From a virus: a stretch of 64,000 nt of DNA. The translations under genes and the position numbers were made by a program. A model generated the notes under the pieces. That model was not told the DNA's origin. It ran no database searches and worked only from the letters and a program-made list of their open reading frames with translations. Every line of letters begins with the position of its first letter. The stretch's first letter is position 1. The stretch lies in the IMG/VR virus record IMGVR_UViG_3300005590_000001, positions 107,988 through 171,987 of that record, one strand, 5' to 3'. Of the stretch, positions 234 through 58,871 are shown piece by piece.

Positions 234-952
234 AAGAATTTACTATTGAGGGAAAGACATACTTTCTTAAGAACCCAACTAACAATTCAGTGTTGGAGTC
301 CGAAGCTAATATGTATTCCGCGCGCGTATTCGCTAAGTTAGTGAAAGCAAAAGATGATGACGGCGAGCATATGTATATTATGCGATCACAATTAGAAGAC
401 TTTTTAAAGTCAGTTGGTGTTTATAGTCAGGATGAATTAAACTCTATCATGGAGATTAATAAGGAAATTGGCGAACTTGAGGCAAAGATTAAGAACGGCG
501 GTGATCTTAAAGAAGGAACTGAAGCGGCTATTAAACTTAAAAATCTGCGACTATCTCTTTTGATTCTTTTAACTCGTAAATTCGAATATGATAAATATAC
601 GGTAGAGCACAATGTTGAGAATGCCAAATTTGATTTTCTCATTACAAAGTGTATTTTAAATGAAGAGAAAAAACCGGTCTTTGAGAGTGTAGACGACTAC
701 AAAGAGAATGAAGAATTGCGAGTTGACATGCGGCCAATGATTGAAGCTTTGGCTGAAATGACAAGTTCATTTGATAGTCAATTTGAAGAAAAGTTGCCGG
801 AAAATCAATTCTTGAAAAAATATAAATTGTGTGATGACCAATTTAATGTTTTGGAAGAAGATAAAACTGAACAGGCTGAAAATCCTGAATCACCAGTCGG
901 TGAATTTACAGAAAAGAAAAAACCTGTTAGAAAGCGTACGACTAAAAAGTAG
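230..952 (+). CDS. Hypothetical protein before the tape measure (possible tail assembly chaperone)
   Basis: A 240-residue acidic protein with a short Lys/Arg-rich C-terminal tail (residues about 228-240). It is predicted mostly helical and has no catalytic motif I can name. It overlaps the upstream gene by 4 bp and ends 10 bp before the tape measure gene. The slot immediately upstream of the tape measure, and the size, fit a tail assembly chaperone of the gpG/gpGT type, which wraps the tape measure during assembly. That is inference from gene order; sequence similarity is not evident by eye. Confidence 0.75.
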   Translation: MKEFTIEGKTYFLKNPTNNSVLESEANMYSARVFAKLVKAKDDDGEHMYIMRSQLEDFLKSVGVYSQDELNSIMEINKEIGELEAKIKNGGDLKEGTEAAIKLKNLRLSLLILLTRKFEYDKYTVEHNVENAKFDFLITKCILNEEKKPVFESVDDYKENEELRVDMRPMIEALAEMTSSFDSQFEEKLPENQFLKKYKLCDDQFNVLEEDKTEQAENPESPVGEFTEKKKPVRKRTTKK

Positions 953-962
953 GTAAGTAATT

Positions 963-3900
963 ATGGCTGCCGATTTTAACCTGCAGGGTGAAATTCAGAT
1001 TCAACTAGCTAAGAATGCTGGTAATAAACTCAAACAAGAAATTCAGGGTTTAGAAGCTGAAATTAATTTGGGCGATAAAAGTATTGACTCACTGGTCAAG
1101 AAAATTAAAGCAATTAAAAAAGTACCGGTGTCTTTACGGGTTTCGAACCAAGCGACATATGATAAGAATTTTGCACCTAAAACGGTTAAGGTTAAATTAG
1201 AACTCTTAAATTCTGAATTAGTTAGTAGTAAGGCAATTAAAGCCGCCGTTTCTAAAAATGCAAAATCGGTAGCCAAAACAACTTCTGATATTCTCAGGGA
1301 GAATGGTAAGGGCGCTGCAGCAGCGTTACGTCAGGATCTTGAAAGAGAATATCCTAGAATGCGTAAATTGTTGGAGCGTATTTTTGATTTAGGATCACAA
1401 CCTGAAAGTAAGTTCTTTAAAACTATTCAAAATCAAGTTTTGGACTTACAAAAAACACTTGGTAAAGATGCTGGAATCGGAGATCTTGTCGATAGTTTAG
1501 TAAATCGATTTAAGGGCTTTGATTCTCGTTCTACCAGTAATCTCGTCAAAGGGTTAGAATCTGTTTATCGCGCTTTTGGTCAACTAGATCGATTGGAAAA
1601 AGACTTTCAGGGTCTCAATCTTGTAAATCCTGAAATAGATAAGGCCCGCGAGCAGATTTTCAATTTATTAAATTCTGTGGATGCTGGTAATCTAACTGCT
1701 TTAGAAACAAATGTTAAAAATGCGATAAAACCATTACGCGACGGACTTACTCAAGCTGTTCGCGATGCTAGAAGCTTTGATACTTTATTGAGTGGTTTAA
1801 AGCAACGTCGTACAAATCTCATTGTTGCTGGTCAAGGCGCCAATTCTTCAGCCATCAGTCAAATTGATCAACAGATCAAAACCGTCCAAAAATTACAAAC
1901 GGCTGGTAAAACTTTTGGTCAAGCTAGAGACAGCGATAGTTTCCGCGAAGCTTTTGCAAATGCCAAAGAAGCTCAAAGAGTTACTGATGAGGGTCGTAGA
2001 GCGTTAGAGGCTTTACGTAAATATGAAATTGATTTTAAATCATCTGATTTGATTGATTCAGAAGCGGCGCAAATCTTGCAAGCTGGTTCTCGTATTACAA
2101 AAGCTTTTGCTCGTAGTGAAAAAGCGATTGCAGATGCTAAAAAGAATTTTGCAGGCGCCAATGTTACTGAGCTACGTCAAAAGGGTGCGGCAGAATTACG
2201 GCAGATTCCTCAATCTGTAGAGAAGTTACAAGGTGTTTTAGATACTATTGATATTTTAGGTAACGACCTAATTCAAAAGGGTATTGACCCAGCTATTATC
2301 GGCGTAGATGAATTTCGTGCTAAGCTTGTAAATCTAGCTAAGTCTGATGCTCCATTAAATAAGATTACTAAAGAACTAAGCTTTATGCAAAATGAGCTTA
2401 AGGCTAGCGAACGTAGCTTTCGTAATATGGAAAGCTTACTAATCAATATTGACCGTATTGGTGAAACTGCTTTTCAAAGCTTTGCTGGCGGTAAAGACTT
2501 TTCTGGAGTTGTTCCGGCGCTAGAAGCTGCTAAAAAGAATATTCAATCTGGACTTAATAAAAGCGAAAGAGAGCTTAAGGCTCAATTTAACAAAGATGTC
2601 ATTAATGTTCGAGATAGAGAAAAGCTTAACACGTTAATCAATAACAATATATTTGGATTTCAAGATGCGGCAGCTGGTGGACGTCCAGATCAAAGAGGTG
2701 CTTTTGAACGAGTAGAGCGTGATTTTCGTTCTTTTGTAGATCAGGTTGTTTCTGGTGGTGAGCCAGTACGCCGACAATATACTAAGATTAAAGATGCGTT
2801 AAAACAGTTCAATGCTGAAGCTGTAATTCTTAAAGAAGGTGGCTTTCTTAATGCTTTCGCAAAATCTACTGGTATTGCCGTTAAACGGTTAAGCGCCTTC
2901 TTAGTTTTTGGTCCAGCTCTATATTCTTTGCAATCTGGTTTATTGAGAACATTTAGTGCAGCTTTATCACTTGAAACACAATTTGCCAAAGTTGAACAAA
3001 TTCTCAGTAAGAATGTTTCTTTGACCGGTTCTGCTAGTTCAGAAACAGCAAGATTAACAGATTTTGTTTTCAACTTATCAAAATCATATGGCGTTGCTTC
3101 ATCAGAAATTGCACAAACTACTAAACTTATTGCACAAACTGGTAAGAGTGGTAGGGAATTAGAGCAAATTCTTACTGCCTTGACTAAGAGTGCATTAGGT
3201 CCTACTTTTGCCGATATTAATCAAACCGGTGAAGCGGCTATCGCAATTCTGAATCAGTTCAGTATTAAAGGTGAAAAATTAGAAGAGGTACTCGGTGGCA
3301 TTGCACGAGTCTCTGGATCTTTTGCTGTTGAAGCAGAAGGTATTGCTACTGCTGTACGTAAAGCTGGTGGTGCTTTTTCTGCAGCGTCACCCGGCGATGG
3401 CACTGGAGTCTTTGGTGAATTTGTTTCGGCGTTTACGGTTATTAAAGAGCAAACACGAGAAGCTGACGAGGCGATTGCTACTGGTCTTCGTAATATTTCT
3501 ATTAGATTACAACGTGGTAGCATTCAAAAATTCTTAAAAAAGGAACTCAATGTTGATCTGGTAAAAGGTGGTCAATTTATTGGTATTGATGCTTCAATTA
3601 AAGCTATTGGTGAATCCTTACGTAAATTAAATATTGAGGCGGGCAGTCCAGTCTTTTCTAATATCATTGAAAAAATTGCTGGTGCAAGACAGTTTGCTAG
3701 ATTGCAACCGTTGATTTTAGGTTATGAACGGCTTGATGAAGTACAAAGGGTGTATGCTGAGGGAGCTAAGGGTGAATTAGATAAAGATGTTGGAATTGCT
3801 CTGGAAACAACCGCTTCCAAACTAACGCGGCTTTCTGAAACTTTTCAAGAATTTGCCAATTCTGTAATTAACACAACGGCATTCAAAATTCTAGTAGATG

Positions 3901-24956: not shown

Positions 24957-25307
24957 TTATTCACTTTCATCAAAATATTTTTCATATGTTTTACCGTCCG
25001 TTGTTTCAGTTTCTTTAAAGATGATACTTAGAGGTATCATATAAGCATTACAGATATTCTTTAAAAATAATTCTGCTGCTTCTTCTGGATCTACAGGACC
25101 CTTTGAAACTGATTCCGGAATGAATGCTTCGCTACATTCATCGTCTATAGCAATTTGTTGATAATAAATTCCTTCCTCATCACTAAAAATAGTTGCCGAT
25201 TTCACTTCGGGAACTGCTTGATTATATTCAATTTTAATTTTCCCATCAGTCTTTTTAACAAGAATATAATATCCTGTGTTAATTAACCGTTGACTTATAG
25301 TTCCCAT
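24957..25307 (-). CDS. Hypothetical protein
   Basis: A 116-residue acidic protein, beta-rich at the start and helical at the end, with no recognisable motif. Its start overlaps the stop of the polymerase C-terminal gene by 13 bp, so it is probably translated from the same message. It may be an accessory of replication simply because of that linkage, which is inference. Confidence 0.65.
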   Translation of the reverse strand: MGTISQRLINTGYYILVKKTDGKIKIEYNQAVPEVKSATIFSDEEGIYYQQIAIDDECSEAFIPESVSKGPVDPEEAAELFLKNICNAYMIPLSIIFKETETTDGKTYEKYFDESE

Positions 25308-27298
25308 ACTTCCTCCAAGACTAATCCACCTCGATTAGATCTTTTTGCATGTAACATAATAATGTTGTTATCATATAATTGATTTTCATAAACCATTTTA
25401 GATGGAAAGCAGACACAATCGCATTCGCCGGTCATGTCTACTAATTTAAAACTGGCCATTACTTGACCTTTGAGCTTACCATTCTTAATTGTAAATTCTC
25501 TGTGATCAGTAATCTCACCAGCAATAATAAACTCGTTTAAATATTTCTTTTTAATATCAGCACATTTGTGTTTACCCATTGGAATTTTACCCGAATTAAT
25601 TTTACGGGCAGAAATACTTGTTCCAAGTAATTCACGTTCATGATCAACAATATTATCAATATGATCATTTAAATCCATTGGCGGGTGCTCTAATGCATTA
25701 AGAACACTTTCGTGAATACTTTTATCTCTTCTGGGTTTTCCATTTTTAATATAATATTCTGCGGCGGCTTTTAAGCTTGTAAATTTATGTTCTTCATAAA
25801 ATGCACGAATATGTTTTTGTTCTGTTTTATTATACACAGTCCACTGATTGTATTCAAATTCAGCTTGAACTCTACCCACCATTAATTGATCAAAACATCC
25901 GGTTCGGATCATTGAGATCATTTGTTTTTTATTCCAATTATGGCTATGTAAAATAAGAAATTCTATCCAAGAACAGTTTTCAAAAGTAAGATTATTATCT
26001 ACTTTATCAAAACTTTTTTCTCCACAATTTTTAATAGAAGACAAACCAAAAGTAACTTTGTCTCCAGCCATATCAAAATCAATTTTTGGATATTGTTTGA
26101 TTGTCGGTGGAATAATGGGAATCTTTAGACGTCTAGATTCAGAAATTACTGAACGAATTTCAGTACGTGTGTCAGCTTCATTTTTTGCATTTCTTAACCA
26201 CGCACAGATATACTCTTGCGGGTAATGGGCCTTAGCCCACGCCGTCCAATATCCAGTTAAGGCATAACCGACACTGTGTGAGTTTGAACTTATTAAGCCA
26301 TTATCTAGATAGAATGTATGACTTGTATTCTTAACTTGCAAATCCACACTATTTCCTTGACGTCGTACTTGTACTATACCATTAACTGTGACAGAATTTC
26401 CCGTTTTTTCCAAAATTTTTGCATTTTTTTTGAAAATTTCTAATATCGGCATCTTTCCAAATGACGTAACAAACTGATGAGTGGGAGAGCACACAACCTC
26501 TCCGGCATTTGTTGAAACCTCTAACATTTGAGTTTGATGAAAAAACACATTCTCAACTCTGCACACACCCTCGGGGGTGTAAACTTCATCGCCAGTGCGG
26601 ACATTAGTAATTTGCATCGGACCCTTTGTGGTTGCTACCAGCGTATCGGGAGCTAAACATTTATTAAATGAATATCTAGCTGCGGCAGAGATTTGTTCAA
26701 ATAAAAATTCACCTTCAGCTTTAGTAATTTTACCTACTTTTTCAACACCGGAAATGAATTTTTCCTTGAAAGAAAATACAATATCAGCTTTTTTCTTTGC
26801 GATGCCCTTTAAGAACTTAAGTGATTCACTTCCTGAAAATCCAGCAACCCTTTGAGCAATTAATAAAATATCTTCTTGATAAACTAAAATGCCATATGTT
26901 TCTGGAGTTAATTGAAAAAGAATATCATCTGGATTATTACCAATTCCATTCTTCCTATCACAGAAAATTTTTGTTAAAGATACTCCATTCTCATCTAAAC
27001 TATTCAACGTACCGGGTCTAATGACTGCTATCAAAGCCGCCGCATCTTCAATTTTTTCTGGTTTTAATTCAGATGCCCAAGTTTTTCCTAAGAAAGACTC
27101 TAACTGAAACACAGATTGTGTGTGGCCCTTGGCATAAACCTCCCAAGATTTTTTACACGCCACATTATTTTCTTCAAACGAAGGGTCACGAAAGTCAATA
27201 AATGGCTTACCGTTAACCTCTAATACTTTACATCCACATTCTAATTGTTTATATTGTTTCACACTAAACATCCTTATGACAGACAACAAATCTGTCAT
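25295..27298 (-). CDS. dnaE: DNA polymerase III alpha, C-terminal gene, with mini-intein
   Basis: A 667-residue ORF (about 541 after splicing) carrying the fingers and downstream part of a bacterial-type replicative polymerase. SVFQLES at about 62-68, LIAVIRPGTL near 89-98 and YGILVYQEDILLIAQRVAGFSG are classic DnaE sequences. The conserved YSFNKSHS..YALTGY block is interrupted after FNK by a 126-residue intein (residues 214-339). The C-terminal part has a helix-hairpin-helix-like region and an OB-fold (EFIIAGEITDHREF...MASFKLVDMTGECDC). An upstream CGC motif (about 22-24) is typical of phage DnaE relatives. The PHP and palm domains are on a separate gene at 29390-31243, so two subunits must associate to form the active enzyme. 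Confidence 0.93.
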   Translation of the reverse strand: MTDLLSVIRMFSVKQYKQLECGCKVLEVNGKPFIDFRDPSFEENNVACKKSWEVYAKGHTQSVFQLESFLGKTWASELKPEKIEDAAALIAVIRPGTLNSLDENGVSLTKIFCDRKNGIGNNPDDILFQLTPETYGILVYQEDILLIAQRVAGFSGSESLKFLKGIAKKKADIVFSFKEKFISGVEKVGKITKAEGEFLFEQISAAARYSFNKCLAPDTLVATTKGPMQITNVRTGDEVYTPEGVCRVENVFFHQTQMLEVSTNAGEVVCSPTHQFVTSFGKMPILEIFKKNAKILEKTGNSVTVNGIVQVRRQGNSVDLQVKNTSHTFYLDNGLISSNSHSVGYALTGYWTAWAKAHYPQEYICAWLRNAKNEADTRTEIRSVISESRRLKIPIIPPTIKQYPKIDFDMAGDKVTFGLSSIKNCGEKSFDKVDNNLTFENCSWIEFLILHSHNWNKKQMISMIRTGCFDQLMVGRVQAEFEYNQWTVYNKTEQKHIRAFYEEHKFTSLKAAAEYYIKNGKPRRDKSIHESVLNALEHPPMDLNDHIDNIVDHERELLGTSISARKINSGKIPMGKHKCADIKKKYLNEFIIAGEITDHREFTIKNGKLKGQVMASFKLVDMTGECDCVCFPSKMVYENQLYDNNIIMLHAKRSNRGGLVLEEVWEL
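26282..26659 (-). other. DnaE mini-intein (126 residues, no endonuclease)
   Basis: Intein from C214 to N339 of the polymerase ORF. Block A is CLAPDTLVAT, block B GEVVCSPTHQFVT (Ser/Thr-x-x-His present), block F VDLQVKNTSHTFYLDNG, and block G GLISSN with Ser as the +1 extein residue. The usual penultimate His is Ser here, a non-standard C-terminal splice site. No room exists for a homing endonuclease. The flanking exteins, FNK and SHSV, are the universally conserved DnaE sequence. The site is three residues downstream of the well-known split-intein position of cyanobacterial DnaE. Confidence 0.9.
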
Positions 27299-29036: not shown

Positions 29037-29400
29037 TTTTTAACTCACAATTTTCATTTTCTAAAAACTCTATATAATTTTTTAAATTAAAGATTTCTGC
29101 TTCTAAATCATCTTGATGCATATCCTCAGCTTCTAATTCTTTATCATAAGCCTTAAATGCATATGCAAATCCAAAAATAAAATGTAATAAACTACTTTTA
29201 AGTAACTCTCCGTCTTTTAAATCTGGATTGGTAATGATCTCGTGTACACATTTACTATACAAAGAGTATAAAAATTTTTCTTTCTTTACAGAATGAATAA
29301 TGTTTAAAATTTTAGATTCATTCATATCTAAGATAGATTGAAGTTTTTCTACAGGAAAATCTTTCAGCAATAAATCTTTTGTTGCTTTGCTAATCTTCAT
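29020..29400 (-). CDS. Hypothetical helical protein
   Basis: A 126-residue, mostly helical protein, ending in an acidic coiled-coil-like stretch. It has no recognised motif. It overlaps both neighbours (17 bp downstream, 11 bp with the polymerase N-terminal gene) and so is part of the polymerase operon. A polymerase accessory role is possible from position only. Confidence 0.65.
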   Translation of the reverse strand: MKISKATKDLLLKDFPVEKLQSILDMNESKILNIIHSVKKEKFLYSLYSKCVHEIITNPDLKDGELLKSSLLHFIFGFAYAFKAYDKELEAEDMHQDDLEAEIFNLKNYIEFLENENCELKNGNQE

Positions 29401-31243
29401 AATTGGATTGTAATATATTATTAAGTTCCATTAAACAATCCAAATTCTTCAATGCTAAAATATCAAATTTTACTAAACTAACATCTTCGAAAGAATACAT
29501 GTCTAAGGCACAAATATTCTTATTTTTCTTTTGATCTCTAGTTATTGGAGCGTTGGATGTTATTGGAAGATCTGAGATGATAACAGCAGATGGGTGAGAA
29601 GAGGTTGATTTAATTGCACCTTCTAATTGAATTGCTAATTTAAAATACTTTGCCCATTCACCAACAAGTTTATTATTGCCGCTTTCATCAGTTTCAACCC
29701 TACAGTAATCATGGAGTAATTCCGGTTCTTCTTTAAGCGTGTAGAGTAATAGTGAGTCAGTTCCTTCTCGTTTTGAGAATTCTTCCAACTTGTCAGAAAT
29801 CTTATCTTTGGCCGGAATTAATTCCGAAACTTTATTCATTGTTGTGTGATCACATACTTGATATACGCGAAGGACATCCTTTAACGCACCTCGTCCTTGT
29901 AATTTACCAAAGGCGACTGCTTGAACAACATGCTCTTCTCCGTATTTTTCTGTAATATATCGAATTACATCATCGCGGCGAGATGTTGGAAAGTCTACAT
30001 CATAATCCGGTAATTGCCCAGCTTTAGCGCGGTCAACAGAATAGAATCTCTCAAAGAGTAAATTGTATTTAATCGGATCGAGAGAGGTAATTCCGAGAAA
30101 GAATCCGGTAAGACAGCCTCCTCCGGAACCACGAGCTGGCCCCACAAGCATTCCTTGATTAATTGCCCACTGTACATAGTCTTGGACGATGAGGAAATAT
30201 CCGGAAAGATTGGACGAACAGATAAGTTCGAGTTCTGTTTCCAAACGTTTCTTGTAAATTGGATCGTTATCATACTGTTCTTCGAGAACCTTGTAACATA
30301 TTTCTTTAAGTTTAGCATTGTCATCGTCGGAAAATTTCGGAATGGCTGGTTTGCTAGTGATGTCATAATCTTCTATCTTATCTACAATTTCTTGTGTTGT
30401 ATCAAGTAATTTTTGTGGATAACATTTATTAGCAACCTCATTAGTAATTAAACCATATTTCCCGGAAGTAAAGTATGGTATATCATCCAAATATTTTACT
30501 TGTGTATTCTGCTTAATTGCCACAAATGTTTTATGTGCTGGGGCATCAGACTTATCAATATAATGAGAATCGCCGGTACCAACTGATTGAAATCCATGTT
30601 GTTCTGCGAGTCTAAAAAGAGTTAAACCCAATGCTTGTTGAAGCATATCATCCTTATCAAATAGTTGGCATTCAACATAAAAGTCTTTGCCGAATACATT
30701 TTTATATCTAGAACATATCTCTATGAATTCTTCTTCGTAAGTTGGGAGAAGATATTGGTCTGCACATTCTAGTGTCTCGCACATAGAGACACCTTCATTA
30801 TTATAAAATATAATATTTGCTAAAGCTGTACCCAAATGACCACATATGACTATTAAACCCTCACTGTGATTAAATAATGCTTCTTCATCAATTCTGGGAT
30901 AATAATAAAAATTATTAGCGGCATACTCGGTTAATTTACACAGATTCTGGAATCCTGTTTTATTTTTTGCAAGTACCACTAAATGATCTAATTTACGATT
31001 CTCATTATTCTTTTCTTTTGCTGATTTTGAATCTTGGCAGATATAAAACTCAATACCATAAATTGGTTTTATACCTTCTTTTTCGCAAGCTTTACATAAG
31101 TCTACACAGTTAGACATATTGCCGTGATCAGTGAGAGCAACGGCAGTTTGACCATCTGCTTTTACAAATTTTACAATATCTTCAATCTTTGAGAAACTAT
31201 CCCATGAATATAATGAATGTACATGTAAATTTGTAAAGCTCAT
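29390..31243 (-). CDS. dnaE: DNA polymerase III alpha, N-terminal gene (PHP and palm)
   Basis: A 617-residue protein. The PHP domain opens with NLHVHSLYSWDS (His 7 and 9) and TDHGN at 38-42. GPARGSGGGCLTGFFLGIT and LLFERF lead into the palm, with PDYDVDF at 412-418 (catalytic D413 and D415), the FGKLQGRGALKDV segment, and a third acidic residue D594 in VKFDILALK. It stops about 24 residues after that motif, just where the fingers begin. The rest of the enzyme is encoded 2.1 kb downstream at 25295-27298. No intein motif lies at this end, so the break is a gene split and not a split intein. The protein must pair with the other gene product. Confidence 0.93.
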   Translation of the reverse strand: MSFTNLHVHSLYSWDSFSKIEDIVKFVKADGQTAVALTDHGNMSNCVDLCKACEKEGIKPIYGIEFYICQDSKSAKEKNNENRKLDHLVVLAKNKTGFQNLCKLTEYAANNFYYYPRIDEEALFNHSEGLIVICGHLGTALANIIFYNNEGVSMCETLECADQYLLPTYEEEFIEICSRYKNVFGKDFYVECQLFDKDDMLQQALGLTLFRLAEQHGFQSVGTGDSHYIDKSDAPAHKTFVAIKQNTQVKYLDDIPYFTSGKYGLITNEVANKCYPQKLLDTTQEIVDKIEDYDITSKPAIPKFSDDDNAKLKEICYKVLEEQYDNDPIYKKRLETELELICSSNLSGYFLIVQDYVQWAINQGMLVGPARGSGGGCLTGFFLGITSLDPIKYNLLFERFYSVDRAKAGQLPDYDVDFPTSRRDDVIRYITEKYGEEHVVQAVAFGKLQGRGALKDVLRVYQVCDHTTMNKVSELIPAKDKISDKLEEFSKREGTDSLLLYTLKEEPELLHDYCRVETDESGNNKLVGEWAKYFKLAIQLEGAIKSTSSHPSAVIISDLPITSNAPITRDQKKNKNICALDMYSFEDVSLVKFDILALKNLDCLMELNNILQSNYED

Positions 31244-54770: not shown

Positions 54771-55018
54771 TTACTGATATCCTCACTTAATGATAATAAT
54801 AAGTCAAGGAAATTTTTATTATCTCCTAAATAACGAAAGGTTACAGTTACTTCGTTTTCAATTGGGAAACAAATAGGGTTCATTATAGTTTGACTATTAC
54901 CAAATCCAAAATTAACATTTTGTGTTTCTGTAGAACCGCTATAATCAATGGATGAGACGGCAACCTTTTTGGATTCTAAATGACTTTTGAGTTTCGCAAA
55001 AAATTCATCATAAGTCAT
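54767..55018 (-). CDS. Hypothetical protein
   Basis: An 83-residue protein with a helical start and beta C-terminal half. No family recognised. It overlaps the NrdB start by 4 bp and the following gene by 4 bp, so it is part of the reductase operon, but a functional link is not shown. Confidence 0.6.
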   Translation of the reverse strand: MTYDEFFAKLKSHLESKKVAVSSIDYSGSTETQNVNFGFGNSQTIMNPICFPIENEVTVTFRYLGDNKNFLDLLLSLSEDISK

Positions 55019-55449
55019 TTTAAATTCTCCAACACAAACTTAATCCACGCATGTTGTTTTTTTGTATCTTCTAGTGTCAATTTGATATTATATTTTATAA
55101 TAAAATTTTGTAAAGTCTCAAATGCATTTGACCTTTGAGTGGGTTCAATTATCACTGAATCTTTTATATGGCCTTTTCGAATTGTTAATTGAGAAGCCTT
55201 ATCAAACACAGTTTCCATTCCTGGTGGAAAAATATTTGCATTCTTGACTAATAAATATGGATAGTGATATTTAGTTTCGAATGCGTTATAAAGATATACA
55301 TTTTTGTTTTTTAACCAATCATAATTTAAAATTTCTTGATTGATTTTATCTTTAGATTCTTTAGCAATTTTTTTCTTAACTGATTGTAATTTTTTAATTT
55401 GATCATCCAGATCATTTAATTGACCAACCAAAGATGTCGACATTTTCAA
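55015..55449 (-). CDS. Hypothetical coiled-coil protein
   Basis: A 144-residue protein with an N-terminal coiled coil (residues about 8-40) and a C-terminal globular part. No motif I recognise. It lies 6 bp downstream of the C-terminal half of nrdA. Confidence 0.6.
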   Translation of the reverse strand: MKMSTSLVGQLNDLDDQIKKLQSVKKKIAKESKDKINQEILNYDWLKNKNVYLYNAFETKYHYPYLLVKNANIFPPGMETVFDKASQLTIRKGHIKDSVIIEPTQRSNAFETLQNFIIKYNIKLTLEDTKKQHAWIKFVLENLK

Positions 55450-55455
55450 ACCTTT

Positions 55456-56493
55456 CTAAATTGAACAAGCTCCACTTTCACATCTGTCAGATTCATGCGC
55501 TTCAGCACTATCATCCGGCGTATTGTTATAATACATTGTACGTAGTCCATACTTATACGCCAACATAATATCTTTAATTACTACAGATCGTGGAATTTTA
55601 CCATCTGGATAATGTTGATAATTCAAATATGTATTAAAGCTAATACCCATATCAAACCAACGTTGCATTGCCGCTGCAATTTTAATCATATTTGCATTTG
55701 ATGTAATATCCCATGCAATTGCATATTCATTTTTGTATCTTGGATAATTTGGTATAAGTACTTTTTTAATACCATTTTTTGCAGTTTTTTCTGTTAAAAA
55801 TGAACGAATTGGTTCTATACCATTAGTAGAAGATTGACAGATTGATGAGCTTTCGCACGGCATCTGTGCTGTGACTGTGCAATTACGTAATCCATAATTC
55901 TTGATTCGTTCACGTAATTTTTCCCAGTCCATTTTATATGAAAAAGCAATGTCTTCTGGAACCAAATCACGATCAGTCGGCAATACACCCAAAGAGTAAT
56001 CTACAGAATTAAAATCATCTGCGGCACCATGAGTTTCAGCCATTTCACAACTTGCAGAAAGCAAGTAATACTGCAAACGCTCGCACAGATCGTTCATTGC
56101 AGCAACAGCATCTGGGCTTTCATGATTCAGTTTCTGTGATGCTAGCCATGCGGCGAAATTAGTTACGCCAACTCCCAGACTACGTTTTCTTTTGCAGAAA
56201 TTCGCAGCTGCCGTAAATGGATATTCTTGATAATCAATGACTTCATTTAGGATATATACGATCATTCTGCATACGTTTTCCAATTCATCGTCTTTAACCT
56301 GAAGAAGATTTACGGCAGAGAGGATACAGACACCTATTTCGCCATGTTGATCATGGATTGACTGCAGAGGTCTCACAGGCTGAAGAATTTCGCAATTATG
56401 AACTAATATATCATTAGCATAAAAATTATGATTATCTTTAACTGTAATATCAAAAACATGTTCTGTTTGCTTAAGTTTTTTTATTTTTAGCAT
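55456..56493 (-). CDS. nrdA: Ribonucleotide reductase large subunit, C-terminal half with C-intein
   Basis: A 345-residue ORF. Residues 1-33 are the C-terminal half of a split intein (block F EHVFDITVKDNHNFYAND, block G ILVHN) and the +1 extein residue is C34. Residues 34-345 are NrdA: CEILQP (E35 corresponds to the catalytic Glu 441 of E. coli NrdA), C56 in GEIGVCILS (redox partner Cys 462), MPCESSS, NGIEP and the C-terminal C338/C343 pair in CESGACSI. After protein splicing the full enzyme would be about 737 residues. The start lies 23 bp inside the upstream homing endonuclease gene, with no strong ribosome-binding site of its own. Confidence 0.95.
   Translation of the reverse strand: MLKIKKLKQTEHVFDITVKDNHNFYANDILVHNCEILQPVRPLQSIHDQHGEIGVCILSAVNLLQVKDDELENVCRMIVYILNEVIDYQEYPFTAAANFCKRKRSLGVGVTNFAAWLASQKLNHESPDAVAAMNDLCERLQYYLLSASCEMAETHGAADDFNSVDYSLGVLPTDRDLVPEDIAFSYKMDWEKLRERIKNYGLRNCTVTAQMPCESSSICQSSTNGIEPIRSFLTEKTAKNGIKKVLIPNYPRYKNEYAIAWDITSNANMIKIAAAMQRWFDMGISFNTYLNYQHYPDGKIPRSVVIKDIMLAYKYGLRTMYYNNTPDDSAEAHESDRCESGACSI
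56395..56493 (-). other. C-terminal half of split NrdA intein
   Basis: A 33-residue C-intein beginning at the ATG of the gene and ending in HN, with Cys as the +1 residue. Block F (VFDITVKDNHNFYAND) and block G (ILVHN) are intact, including the penultimate His. This half pairs with the N-intein on the gene at 57279-58871. The length is in the usual range for split C-inteins (about 30-40). Confidence 0.92.
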
Positions 56494-57223
56494 TTATCAT
56501 ACCTAAAACCATATCTGGTCTTTTATCTTTTATGTGTATTAAATAATTACGGACACCGTCATTATACCACCGGCGACCCTTTAGTGATTTACTAATTTTT
56601 AAACGAGTTTTTTTAGAATAAGTATTTTTAGAATTATAAAAATCTATTTTATAGAATCTAATATTTTGTTTTTTTAATTCCTTTTGTACTTCAATAATAA
56701 AACTTTTAAATGATCCATTAAATCTATTTTTAGAAAATGTTTGAGGATAGCCTTCTCGGCGAGCAAATGCTTTCCATTCGTTGTATCCTAAACTTTTATT
56801 TGTTTTGAAGTATTCTACGGCTATTCGAATTAATTCTTGATCTGAATAACCAGAGTAATTTGGATTTTTATCTTTAGTAGTTCTGGCAGAAACTTTCTTT
56901 TTCCACTCTTTGAATTTACTTTTGGGGACTGACCACCCACCAACTCCACCTTTAGTCAAATTATAACCATGATTTGGGTTATTAGATTTAAATTTTTTGA
57001 CATATCGTCGCTCTTTCTTTTGAGCTTCGGATAGAGAGGTTCCTGTATCTAAAACTTTTGAAACAATATGACACGCACCATGTTTCCGTATTGCGCGATA
57101 AAAATATGTATCGATGCCCGATTTAGCATTGGTAATATGTTTAATCAAACGTTTTTCCATAGTAAATCTAGTAAATCCAATATAGCTTTTATTGTTCAAA
57201 ATATGTTGATAAATTGTATACAT
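56471..57223 (-). CDS. GIY-YIG homing endonuclease between the nrdA halves
   Basis: A 250-residue endonuclease. The GIY-YIG domain shows IY at 4-5, YIG at 14-16, R25 and H29, Glu near 66-71 and N88 in YNLTKGG. The C-terminus has a NUMOD3-like DNA-binding segment (TRLKISKSLKGRRWYNDG), as in Seg/intron-type enzymes. It would cut an intein-less nrdA allele and promote spread of this locus by recombination. It lies exactly between the two intein halves with its own AGGAG site. The ATG follows a small hairpin at 57239-57252. Confidence 0.92.
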   Translation of the reverse strand: MYTIYQHILNNKSYIGFTRFTMEKRLIKHITNAKSGIDTYFYRAIRKHGACHIVSKVLDTGTSLSEAQKKERRYVKKFKSNNPNHGYNLTKGGVGGWSVPKSKFKEWKKKVSARTTKDKNPNYSGYSDQELIRIAVEYFKTNKSLGYNEWKAFARREGYPQTFSKNRFNGSFKSFIIEVQKELKKQNIRFYKIDFYNSKNTYSKKTRLKISKSLKGRRWYNDGVRNYLIHIKDKRPDMVLGMINAKNKKT

Positions 57224-57238
57224 AATATCTCCTTGTTT

Positions 57239-57252
57239 GTGTATAATTACAC
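57239..57252 (-). promoter_or_regulatory. Hairpin upstream of the homing endonuclease
   Basis: A GTGTA/TACAC inverted repeat with a TAAT loop lies in the 55-bp gap between the N-half stop and the endonuclease ATG. On the minus strand it is preceded by CATAAATA, one base from the T4-type late promoter box TATAAATA, and followed by the AGGAG ribosome-binding site. Small hairpins in front of free-standing phage endonucleases often limit their translation. This is a proposal from sequence only. Confidence 0.35.
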
Positions 57253-57278
57253 ATTTTAGAAGATATTTATGAAATTTT

Positions 57279-58871
57279 TCATCCTATATCTAAAACATCA
57301 TCCTCTTTAAGAGATTCTGCCAAAACATATCCACGATTTTTAGTATAGATCTTATGATCTGGTGTACATCTAATTGTTTTACCAGATTTTTCATCCGTTA
57401 TTTCTAAAATCTCCGCGTTGCGTCTGGTTAAACTGGCTGCTAAAATGGGTTGATAACTTATTTCTCCAGTTGCAACATTCTTAGACTTTGCTAAAATTTC
57501 ACCATCTTGATTTAAAATATCTGGCAACTCTTGAATGGGAGCTTTGATTAATTCACCATTAACAGAAATGTCTACAAGAGTGTCACCAGTTAGGCAACAC
57601 AAATTAGTCATTTGAACCGTATCTATCCACGGCGATTCATTAGCCTTGTCAATATTCATTATATAGATGCGGCCGGTTTCTAGTCTTTCTTTTGCAAGTA
57701 AAGCAATAAGATCTCTAGCTCTGATTTGTTTTTTAAGGATTCCGGTTTTTGATTCAAATTCTTCATACAATGCTTCAAAACTAGGTGTACCAAACGCCTC
57801 GTATAAGGCTTCGGCTTGGTGTGGACAGAATAAAGTGATTTCTTCATCATTCTTGATCCGTTCATAAAATACTTTTTCTAATTGTATGCAATAATCTAGT
57901 TTGCGTACCCGATTATCGTCTGTACCAGCATTATTTTTTAATACGATTACATCTTCGATTTCATAATGCCACCAAGGTACTGATACCGTTGCTCCGCCGC
58001 CACGTAATCCATTTTGACTAGTACTTTTAACTGTTGATTCCATAACCTTTAAGAAAGGAATTATACCAGTTGAAATAACTTCACTGTCTCGAATTGGTGA
58101 TCCAATTGCTCTAACACGACCCATATTGATCCCAATACCACTTCTGCGTGCGGTATATTTACCAATCACGGCAGCGGTGGTAAAAATACTATCTAAACTA
58201 TCTCCACAATCTGCTAACACACAACTGGCGTAATACCGCATTTTTGTGCGGACACCTGCAAGTATCGGGGTTGGTAGATTGATCTTAAATTGAGATAGCA
58301 TATTATATGCTTGCTTAATCATACTCATACGATTTTCATAATCTTTAAATAAGATCATCGGAATGAGAATGTATACAAATTGTGGGGTCTCAAAGATTTT
58401 ACCGGTTTTTTTATCTGCAATTAAATACTTATCGATCATTTGTTGAATACCGGCGTGAGTAAAATCAAAATCTCTATCATGCTTGATAAAACGATTGATT
58501 TTATGAATTTCAGATTCAGAATAATATTCTAAAATAATACTATCATAATTGCGGCGGTTACGTTTGATATGATCATATAGTCTAGGAGGATCACATTCGC
58601 CCCACACCTCTTTGCGAAGAGCAAAATTTCTTAACTTGCTAGCCACATATTGGTAGTTTGGATTTTCTTCTGAAATTAAATTATATGCAGACTGAATCAA
58701 TACATCATGAATATCTTCAGTTCTAATTTTATCTGATATTGATAATTGTGCGTTCATACACACATCGCTTGCGGATACATTTTTAATACCATTACAAGCC
58801 CACTCAACAACTTGAGTTATTTTATCTGGATTAAAATCCTCCAGTTTACCATTACGCTTTTTTACTTTCAC
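57279..58871 (-). CDS. nrdA: Ribonucleotide reductase large subunit, N-terminal half with N-intein
   Basis: A 530-residue ORF. Residues 1-425 are NrdA: the N-terminal 90 residues look like an ATP-cone, C217 (E. coli Cys 225) is in YYASCVLADCGDSLDSI, and the ORF reaches the active-site loop as QMTNLC with the thiyl-radical Cys (C425, E. coli Cys 439). Residues 426-530 are the N-intein: block A CLTGDTLVD, block B GKTIRCTPDHKIYT with T-x-x-H, and a VLAESLKEDDVLDIG end. The TGA stop follows. The partner half is encoded 0.8 kb downstream beyond a GIY-YIG endonuclease gene. Confidence 0.95.
   Translation of the reverse strand: MKVKKRNGKLEDFNPDKITQVVEWACNGIKNVSASDVCMNAQLSISDKIRTEDIHDVLIQSAYNLISEENPNYQYVASKLRNFALRKEVWGECDPPRLYDHIKRNRRNYDSIILEYYSESEIHKINRFIKHDRDFDFTHAGIQQMIDKYLIADKKTGKIFETPQFVYILIPMILFKDYENRMSMIKQAYNMLSQFKINLPTPILAGVRTKMRYYASCVLADCGDSLDSIFTTAAVIGKYTARRSGIGINMGRVRAIGSPIRDSEVISTGIIPFLKVMESTVKSTSQNGLRGGGATVSVPWWHYEIEDVIVLKNNAGTDDNRVRKLDYCIQLEKVFYERIKNDEEITLFCPHQAEALYEAFGTPSFEALYEEFESKTGILKKQIRARDLIALLAKERLETGRIYIMNIDKANESPWIDTVQMTNLCCLTGDTLVDISVNGELIKAPIQELPDILNQDGEILAKSKNVATGEISYQPILAASLTRRNAEILEITDEKSGKTIRCTPDHKIYTKNRGYVLAESLKEDDVLDIG
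57282..57596 (-). other. N-terminal half of split NrdA intein
   Basis: A 105-residue N-intein starting at C426 of the N-half gene. Block A (CLTGDTLV) and block B with the TPDH motif are intact. The extein residue before it is the thiyl-radical Cys, so splicing ligates NLC to CEI. The total intein with the C-half is 138 residues, so it is a mini-intein with no room for an internal endonuclease domain. Confidence 0.92.

What the first reader, a model, noticed from the sequence alone, without database searches (positions are those of the whole stretch)
55456..58871. Fractured nrdA: split intein halves on two genes with a GIY-YIG homing endonuclease between them
The N-half gene (57279-58871) ends in a 105-residue N-intein and the C-half gene (55456-56493) begins with a 33-residue C-intein. 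A free-standing GIY-YIG endonuclease (56471-57223) lies between them on the same strand. Blocks A, B, F and G and the HN|C junction are intact, so trans-splicing should give a whole NrdA of about 737 residues. This combines a mini-intein, a gene break and a mobile endonuclease in one essential enzyme. Fractured genes with split inteins are known from environmental phage-like sequences; whether GIY-YIG enzymes have been described at this site I cannot check.
Basis: partly seen in the sequence, partly recalled or inferred. Interest (0 to 1): 0.88.

Follow-up and report, generated by a model that had tools for sequence, protein, structure and literature searches.

The report
Split-intein nrdA with homing endonuclease
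A large environmental phage carries its essential DNA-building enzyme as two separate genes whose protein halves should weld themselves together at the enzyme's active site, with a selfish DNA-cutting gene lodged between them; the kind of arrangement has been known since 2009, but a nearly identical phage without the insert, found here, gives the before-and-after picture.

Summary
Confirmed. All coordinates and lengths in the finding are right. A near-isogenic contig (L004, IMG/VR) has the same nrdA uninterrupted. Relative to it the window carries one insert of exactly 1,202 bp (56395-57596): N-intein, spacer, GIY-YIG gene, C-intein. In silico removal gives a 737-aa NrdA that differs from L004's protein at one residue. 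The intein sits in the active site, directly after the radical cysteine (C439, E. coli numbering, from memory). The endonuclease keeps the GIY-YIG catalytic residues and its model matches I-TevI (TM 0.82). Its leader folds into a hairpin (z -4.7) that hides the ribosome site, with a late-promoter-like octamer at the 5' arm, as described for I-TevI. Differences from L004 cluster around the insert (7 in 131 bp, p=6e-5), as co-conversion would leave. The arrangement is a known kind (fractured genes, Dassa 2009) and common: 84 non-redundant relatives at this site, about 60 with a GIY-YIG-type ORF, plus cultured phages KP13-7 and Yersinia TG1. Less expected: the intein is one codon off the usual register, a shift the intein tree places at least twice; some relatives have nrdA in three or four pieces. 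Trans-splicing and homing are inferred, not shown.

The parts
57597..58871 (-). N-extein of NrdA (425 aa: ATP cone, N domain, first part of barrel), ends ...MTNLC with the catalytic cysteine as last residue
   Evidence: Pfam/NCBIfam; identical register in uninterrupted L004
57279..57596 (-). N-intein, 105 aa (CLTGDT...LDIG) plus stop codon TGA 57279-57281
   Evidence: TIGR01445 above cut-off; nearest solved structure NrdJ-1 split intein, E 4e-19
57264..57271 (-). CATAAATA, T4-type late-promoter-like octamer at the 5' arm of the leader hairpin
   Evidence: the only intergenic one of 50 [TC]ATAAATA sites in the genome's pieces
57221..57271 (-). RNA hairpin that pairs the ribosome-binding site AAGGAG (57229-57234) and the start codon of the endonuclease
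   Evidence: -16.1 kcal/mol, z -4.72; lost if the transcript starts near 57258
56471..57223 (-). GIY-YIG homing endonuclease gene, 250 aa; catalytic-type residues Y5, Y14, R25, H29, E71, N88 invariant in 25 family members
56395..56493 (-). C-intein, 33 aa (MLKIKK...DILVHN); its start codon lies inside the end of the endonuclease gene
   Evidence: TIGR01443 above cut-off; A2 alignment
55456..56394 (-). C-extein of NrdA (312 aa) starting CEILQP; carries the active-site glutamate, the YY pair and the C-terminal CESGAC
56395..57596 (-). the whole 1,202-bp insert relative to the empty-site allele L004
53721..54770 (-). intact nrdB (349 aa), partner subunit, same transcription direction
   Evidence: Pfam PF00268, NCBIfam NF006576 above cut-off

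Best explanation
A mobile cassette (split mini-intein with a GIY-YIG homing endonuclease gene in its gap) has entered the active-site codons of phage nrdA. The two halves are probably translated from one transcript; N-intein and C-intein associate and trans-splice, restoring a 737-aa NrdA with C439-C440 at the joint (inferred from sequence). The endonuclease would cut intein-less nrdA in mixed infections, and repair would copy the cassette with some flank (inferred; the SNP cluster around the insert is consistent). Endonuclease translation is probably held off by a leader hairpin on read-through nrdA transcripts and released on transcripts starting at the promoter-like octamer, as published for I-TevI (inferred). 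The C-half can be translated without the endonuclease because its start lies inside the endonuclease gene's end (inferred).
For: Exact 1,202-bp presence/absence against L004, spliced product 736/737 identical. Intein N and C models above cut-off at the two edges. Best solved relative of the N-intein is the naturally split NrdJ-1 intein, reported as exceptionally fast in trans (PMC7090010). Endonuclease catalytic residues invariant in 25 sequences; model matches the I-TevI catalytic domain, TM 0.82, rmsd 2.0. 7 of the 19 nrdA differences from L004 lie within 65 bp of the joint, p=6e-5. Leader hairpin z -4.72; 47 of 55 testable leaders across the family have z below -2.5 and 35 carry [TC]ATAAATA or TATAAAT. 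Relatives include split+GIY-YIG, split without endonuclease and unsplit intein at the same site, and L005 keeps a remnant of the endonuclease's 3' end.
Against: No splicing, cleavage or homing experiment. The late-promoter reading is weak in this phage: TATAAATA is not enriched, no other site of this kind lies between genes and the phage has a DnaE-type polymerase, so the octamer may be an import or chance. SNPs also cluster elsewhere (L004 2426-2465 and the gene at 55015-55449), so co-conversion is not the only way to get a cluster. Only one empty-site contig was found, and it is a fragment.
Confidence: 0.87

Rival explanations
1. Genes in pieces without splicing: the halves associate non-covalently as in Aeromonas phage Aeh1 NrdA, and the intein pieces are dead remnants.
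For: Aeh1 nrdA is split by mobE and works as two chains without splicing (PMC2988022, PMC3653736).
Against: Both intein edges score above curated cut-offs; splice-site residues and HN|C are kept across relatives diverged to about 45-50% identity, which dead remnants would not keep; the break lies between catalytic C439 and E441, where two loose chains would have free ends inside the active site.
Confidence: 0.05
2. The endonuclease is a non-mobile passenger (inactive or fixed); the cassette is inherited vertically.
For: Homing was not tested; a relative lost the endonuclease and kept the split intein (L005).
Against: All catalytic-type residues present; near-isogenic empty allele; the intein tree forces at least two changes of insertion register.
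Confidence: 0.12
3. Assembly artefact: a chimeric metagenomic contig joins an nrdA with an unrelated insert.
For: The source is an uncultured virus record; L004 is nearly identical but lacks the insert.
Against: Same order in dozens of contigs from different metagenomes and in the cultured phages KP13-7 and TG1; exact intein boundaries.
Confidence: 0.02

Closest known systems
Fractured genes (Dassa et al. 2009, doi 10.1093/nar/gkp095; paper not held, cited in PMC3653736, PMC7891396 and PMC7090010)
   Same: Conserved enzyme gene broken by a split intein with a free-standing endonuclease gene in the gap; RNR genes among the hosts (7 nrdA and 2 nrdJ in ocean data as quoted in PMC3653736).
   Different: Here the phage genome context, an isogenic empty site, and insertion one codon downstream of the usual register. 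From memory, about half of their endonucleases were Vsr-like; here GIY-YIG.
AceL NrdHF fractured gene (PMC7891396)
   Same: Split intein with a GIY-YIG gene between the halves of a ribonucleotide reductase gene.
   Different: Beta-subunit gene, class 3 intein with Ala1; the window is nrdA (alpha) with a Cys1/Cys+1 intein.
NrdJ-1 split intein (PDB 8ubs, 9omb)
   Same: Clear N-intein homology (E 4e-19) and C-intein homology; naturally split, active in trans.
   Different: Its host gene is nrdJ (class II RNR, by its name).
Yersinia phage vB_YenM_TG1 and Klebsiella phage KP13-7 nrdA
   Same: Cultured phages with split inteins at the same nrdA site; KP13-7 has a GIY-YIG gene and the window's register.
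   Different: TG1 has an HNH gene and the usual register; KP13-7 nrdA is in four pieces.
I-TevI leader switch of the T4 td intron (PMC2988022)
   Same: Hairpin hides the ribosome site; promoter placed so that its transcripts lack the 5' arm.
   Different: I-TevI sits in a group I intron; here in a split-intein gap of a phage without clear T4-type late promoters elsewhere.
Aeh1 nrdA-a/mobE/nrdA-b
   Same: nrdA broken by a homing endonuclease gene.
   Different: Halves work without ligation; HNH mobE.

Membership tests
Fractured gene with split intein | One enzyme gene encoded as two ORFs whose domains continue across the break | tested here: met
   RNR barrel profile continues 213 to 208 across the halves; 737-aa product matches L004
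Fractured gene with split intein | N-intein on the first ORF and C-intein on the second, with splice-junction residues | tested here: met
   TIGR01445 and TIGR01443 above cut-off; Cys1, HN, Cys+1
Fractured gene with split intein | Free-standing endonuclease gene between the halves | tested here: met
   GIY-YIG ORF 56471-57223
Fractured gene with split intein | Protein trans-splicing | not testable with these tools
   needs expression of both halves
GIY-YIG homing endonuclease (I-TevI type) | GIY-YIG catalytic fold and residues (Tyr, Tyr, Arg, His, Glu, Asn) | tested here: met
   invariant Y5, Y14, R25, H29, E71, N88; I-TevI 1mk0 E 2.5e-4, TMt 0.82. Pfam GIY-YIG did not ring for the window's own protein
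GIY-YIG homing endonuclease (I-TevI type) | Cuts the allele lacking the element; element copied with flanking markers | tested here: inconclusive
   empty allele exists and differences cluster at the joint; cutting itself cannot be tested here
I-TevI-type late switch | Hairpin sequestering the ribosome site | tested here: met
   z -4.72, AAGGAG paired
I-TevI-type late switch | Late promoter inside or at the 5' arm | tested here: inconclusive
   CATAAATA present; hairpin lost if +1 is about 57258 but kept if +1 is 57266; no other such promoters seen in this genome

The most novel reading that the evidence does not exclude
At this active site the same cassette family exists in two registers one codon apart: usually between L438 and C439 (C439 is the +1 residue), but in the window and ten other non-redundant relatives between C439 and a rare C440. 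The intein phylogeny requires the change at least twice. The most novel reading is that the element can enter by short matches between its own terminal Cys codons and any Cys codon at the target, so that a second, non-conserved Cys opens a new splice register without damage to the enzyme.
Probability: 0.35. Interest if true: 0.6.

Novelty: new member of a known kind. Interest (0 to 1): 0.5.

Why it matters
The window plus L004 is a natural before-and-after pair for a split-intein homing cassette in an essential enzyme, with a defined empty site for cleavage and homing tests. The survey suggests that trans-splicing at the RNR active site is widespread in environmental phages and reaches cultured ones, where deposited annotation calls some of the pieces hypothetical proteins (KP13-7). 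It also gives many natural split inteins, some in pairs that must work side by side in one protein, which is useful for protein ligation.

Tried and rejected
The close-relative scan with the endonuclease alone found nothing; the profile scan worked. T4-type late promoters genome-wide: TATAAATA is below the chance expectation in the window and only one site is intergenic, so the claim that the phage uses late promoters was lowered to 'promoter-like'. The Gp23 family search gave no information because the controls also stayed silent. Cyanophage hits that aligned from residue 1 have nrdA annotated as one CDS with no sign of an insert; their translations were not read. The bacterial genome scan found only distant or C-intein-only similarity, no fractured nrdA close to this one. 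The Dassa 2009 paper is not held, so its list of endonuclease types could not be read. Sequence search of the endonuclease against the PDB gave only chance hits. Covariation of the leader hairpin is thin (one pair with changes on both sides in each of two groups), so that case rests on energy z-scores and recurrence.

Full report
Observation. NrdA domains run on from the N-half into the C-half, and intein N- and C-terminal models score above their curated cut-offs at the two inner edges. The N-intein has 105 residues and the C-intein 33. The endonuclease ORF overlaps the C-half by 23 nt.

The empty site. L004 (IMGVR_UViG_3300027828_000084, a 30-kb contig) is nearly identical to the window over about 9 kb; most 200-bp bins show no difference or one. 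Its nrdA is one ORF of 737 codons. Joining the window's exons in silico gives 2,214 nt that align without gaps to L004, with 19 differences and one amino-acid change, T376A. The insert is 1,202 bp. Seven of the 19 differences lie within 65 bp of the joint (hypergeometric p = 6e-5), including the third bases of both cysteine codons at the joint. This is what co-conversion beside a homing event leaves, but other clusters exist (L004 2426-2465; gene 55015-55449), so it is support, not proof.

Where it sits. The joint reads N-L-C | C-E (residues 423-427 of the joined protein). By E. coli numbering (from memory) these are N437, L438, C439 (the radical cysteine), residue 440 and E441. Neither half alone has a complete active site. 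The other catalytic residues expected of class I NrdA (C217 in ASC, Y713-Y714, CESGAC at the C-terminus) are present in the joined product (assignment by motif).

The endonuclease. Pfam alone misses it, but NCBIfam, PHROGs, relatives and structure agree. In 25 family members Y5, Y14, G16, R25, H29, E71 and N88 are invariant, the GIY-YIG catalytic pattern. The AlphaFold model (mean pLDDT 84) matches the I-TevI catalytic domain with TM 0.82 and rmsd 2.0.

The leader. Between the N-half stop and the endonuclease start lies a hairpin of -16.1 kcal/mol (z -4.72) that pairs the AAGGAG ribosome site and the start codon; CATAAATA lies at its 5' arm. A transcript starting about six nucleotides downstream of the octamer would lack the arm and leave the ribosome site open. 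Of 55 testable leaders in the family, 47 have z below -2.5 and 35 carry [TC]ATAAATA or TATAAAT, in many within the loop of the hairpin. This is the I-TevI design described in PMC2988022. In this phage the octamer is the only intergenic one of 50, and the phage has a DnaE-type polymerase, so the promoter may have arrived with the cassette, and its activity here is open.

The family. Profile searches of IMG/VR gave 84 non-redundant intein sequences at this site: about 60 split with a GIY-YIG-type ORF (25-bit profile threshold; a few are weak or mixed), 12 split with another or unrecognised ORF, 9 split with no ORF or a short gap, and 3 unsplit. The other ORFs include I-HmuI/NUMOD-like, LEM-3-like GIY-YIG, phage-endonuclease-I-like and DUF7487 matches. 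75 of the 80 best endonuclease relatives lie beside intein halves. L005 has lost the endonuclease but keeps about 70 bp of its 3' end, which holds the C-half's start region. No bacterial genome carried a close copy. Cultured members are Yersinia phage TG1 (HNH), Klebsiella phage KP13-7 (GIY-YIG) and, for the N-intein, Campylobacter phages.

Two registers. In most relatives the intein lies between L438 and C439, so that C439 itself is the +1 residue. In 11 of 84, the window included, it lies between C439 and C440. Among 81 intein-free nrdA loci, codon 440 is Cys in 4 (two of them the same contig) and Thr in 68. The intein tree needs 3 changes of register and its starred branches force at least 2 (short alignment, quick method). 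L129 shows the usual register with Cys at 440, so a second Cys does not force the shift.

More pieces. Several relatives have nrdA in three pieces: a second split intein lies at the MPxE | T/S-S motif in L112, L024, L122, L124 and L136, with an HNH-like ORF in the second gap in L112 and L024 (HNH by eye). L007 has a different second site (RKG | SATLY) with its own endonuclease-like ORF. KP13-7 has four pieces. I did not find this described in the held papers, but the library is partial, and Campylobacter phage IBB_35 is annotated with three inteins in nrdA.

Same genome. The 172-kb record also has a fractured RNA ligase with a DUF7487/PHROG_22677 ORF on the opposite strand between the halves, an intein with LAGLIDADG in an epimerase gene, and a mini-intein in a dnaE that is itself in two ORFs.

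Verdict. A true fractured nrdA: a new member of a known kind. What raises it above routine is the isogenic empty site, the register shift and the conserved leader. What is shown is sequence anatomy and distribution; trans-splicing, cutting, homing and timing are inferred.

Noticed in passing
L002 (G000:C1:45334-48432), ORFs 2464-3087(-), 1586-2518(+), 781-1650(-): A second fractured gene in the same phage: RNA ligase split at KVHG|C...HN|TSQRTG, inside what looks like its nucleotidyl-transfer motif, with a DUF7487/PHROG_22677 (possibly Vsr-like) ORF on the opposite strand in the gap.
   Followed up: partly
window 25295-27298 and 29390-31243 (-): DnaE-type polymerase in two ORFs with four genes between them and no intein at that break; the second ORF holds a contiguous mini-intein at FNK|C...SN|SHSVGYA.
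   Followed up: partly
L003 1042-3036 (-), G000:C1 about 17.2-19.2 kb: Full intein with LAGLIDADG domain in an NAD-dependent epimerase/GDP-mannose dehydratase gene.
   Followed up: no
L264 (Klebsiella phage KP13-7, OP617745.1 29234-37749): nrdA in four coding pieces: HNH gene (intron likely), split intein with GIY-YIG gene in the window's register, second split intein with HNH-like gene; the middle ORFs are deposited as hypothetical proteins.
   Followed up: partly
L007, L024, L112, L122, L124, L136: nrdA broken into three pieces by two different split inteins, so two trans-splicing reactions would be needed for one enzyme chain.
   Followed up: partly
window 55015-55449 (-) against L004 3891-4322: The small gene just downstream of nrdA is clearly diverged between two otherwise near-identical phages (over 50 differences in about 400 bp), as if replaced by recombination.
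   Followed up: no
L109, L012, L117: Unsplit inteins at the same RNR active-site position; L109 nests among split ones with moderate support, so it may be a re-fused form or an ancestral one.
   Followed up: no
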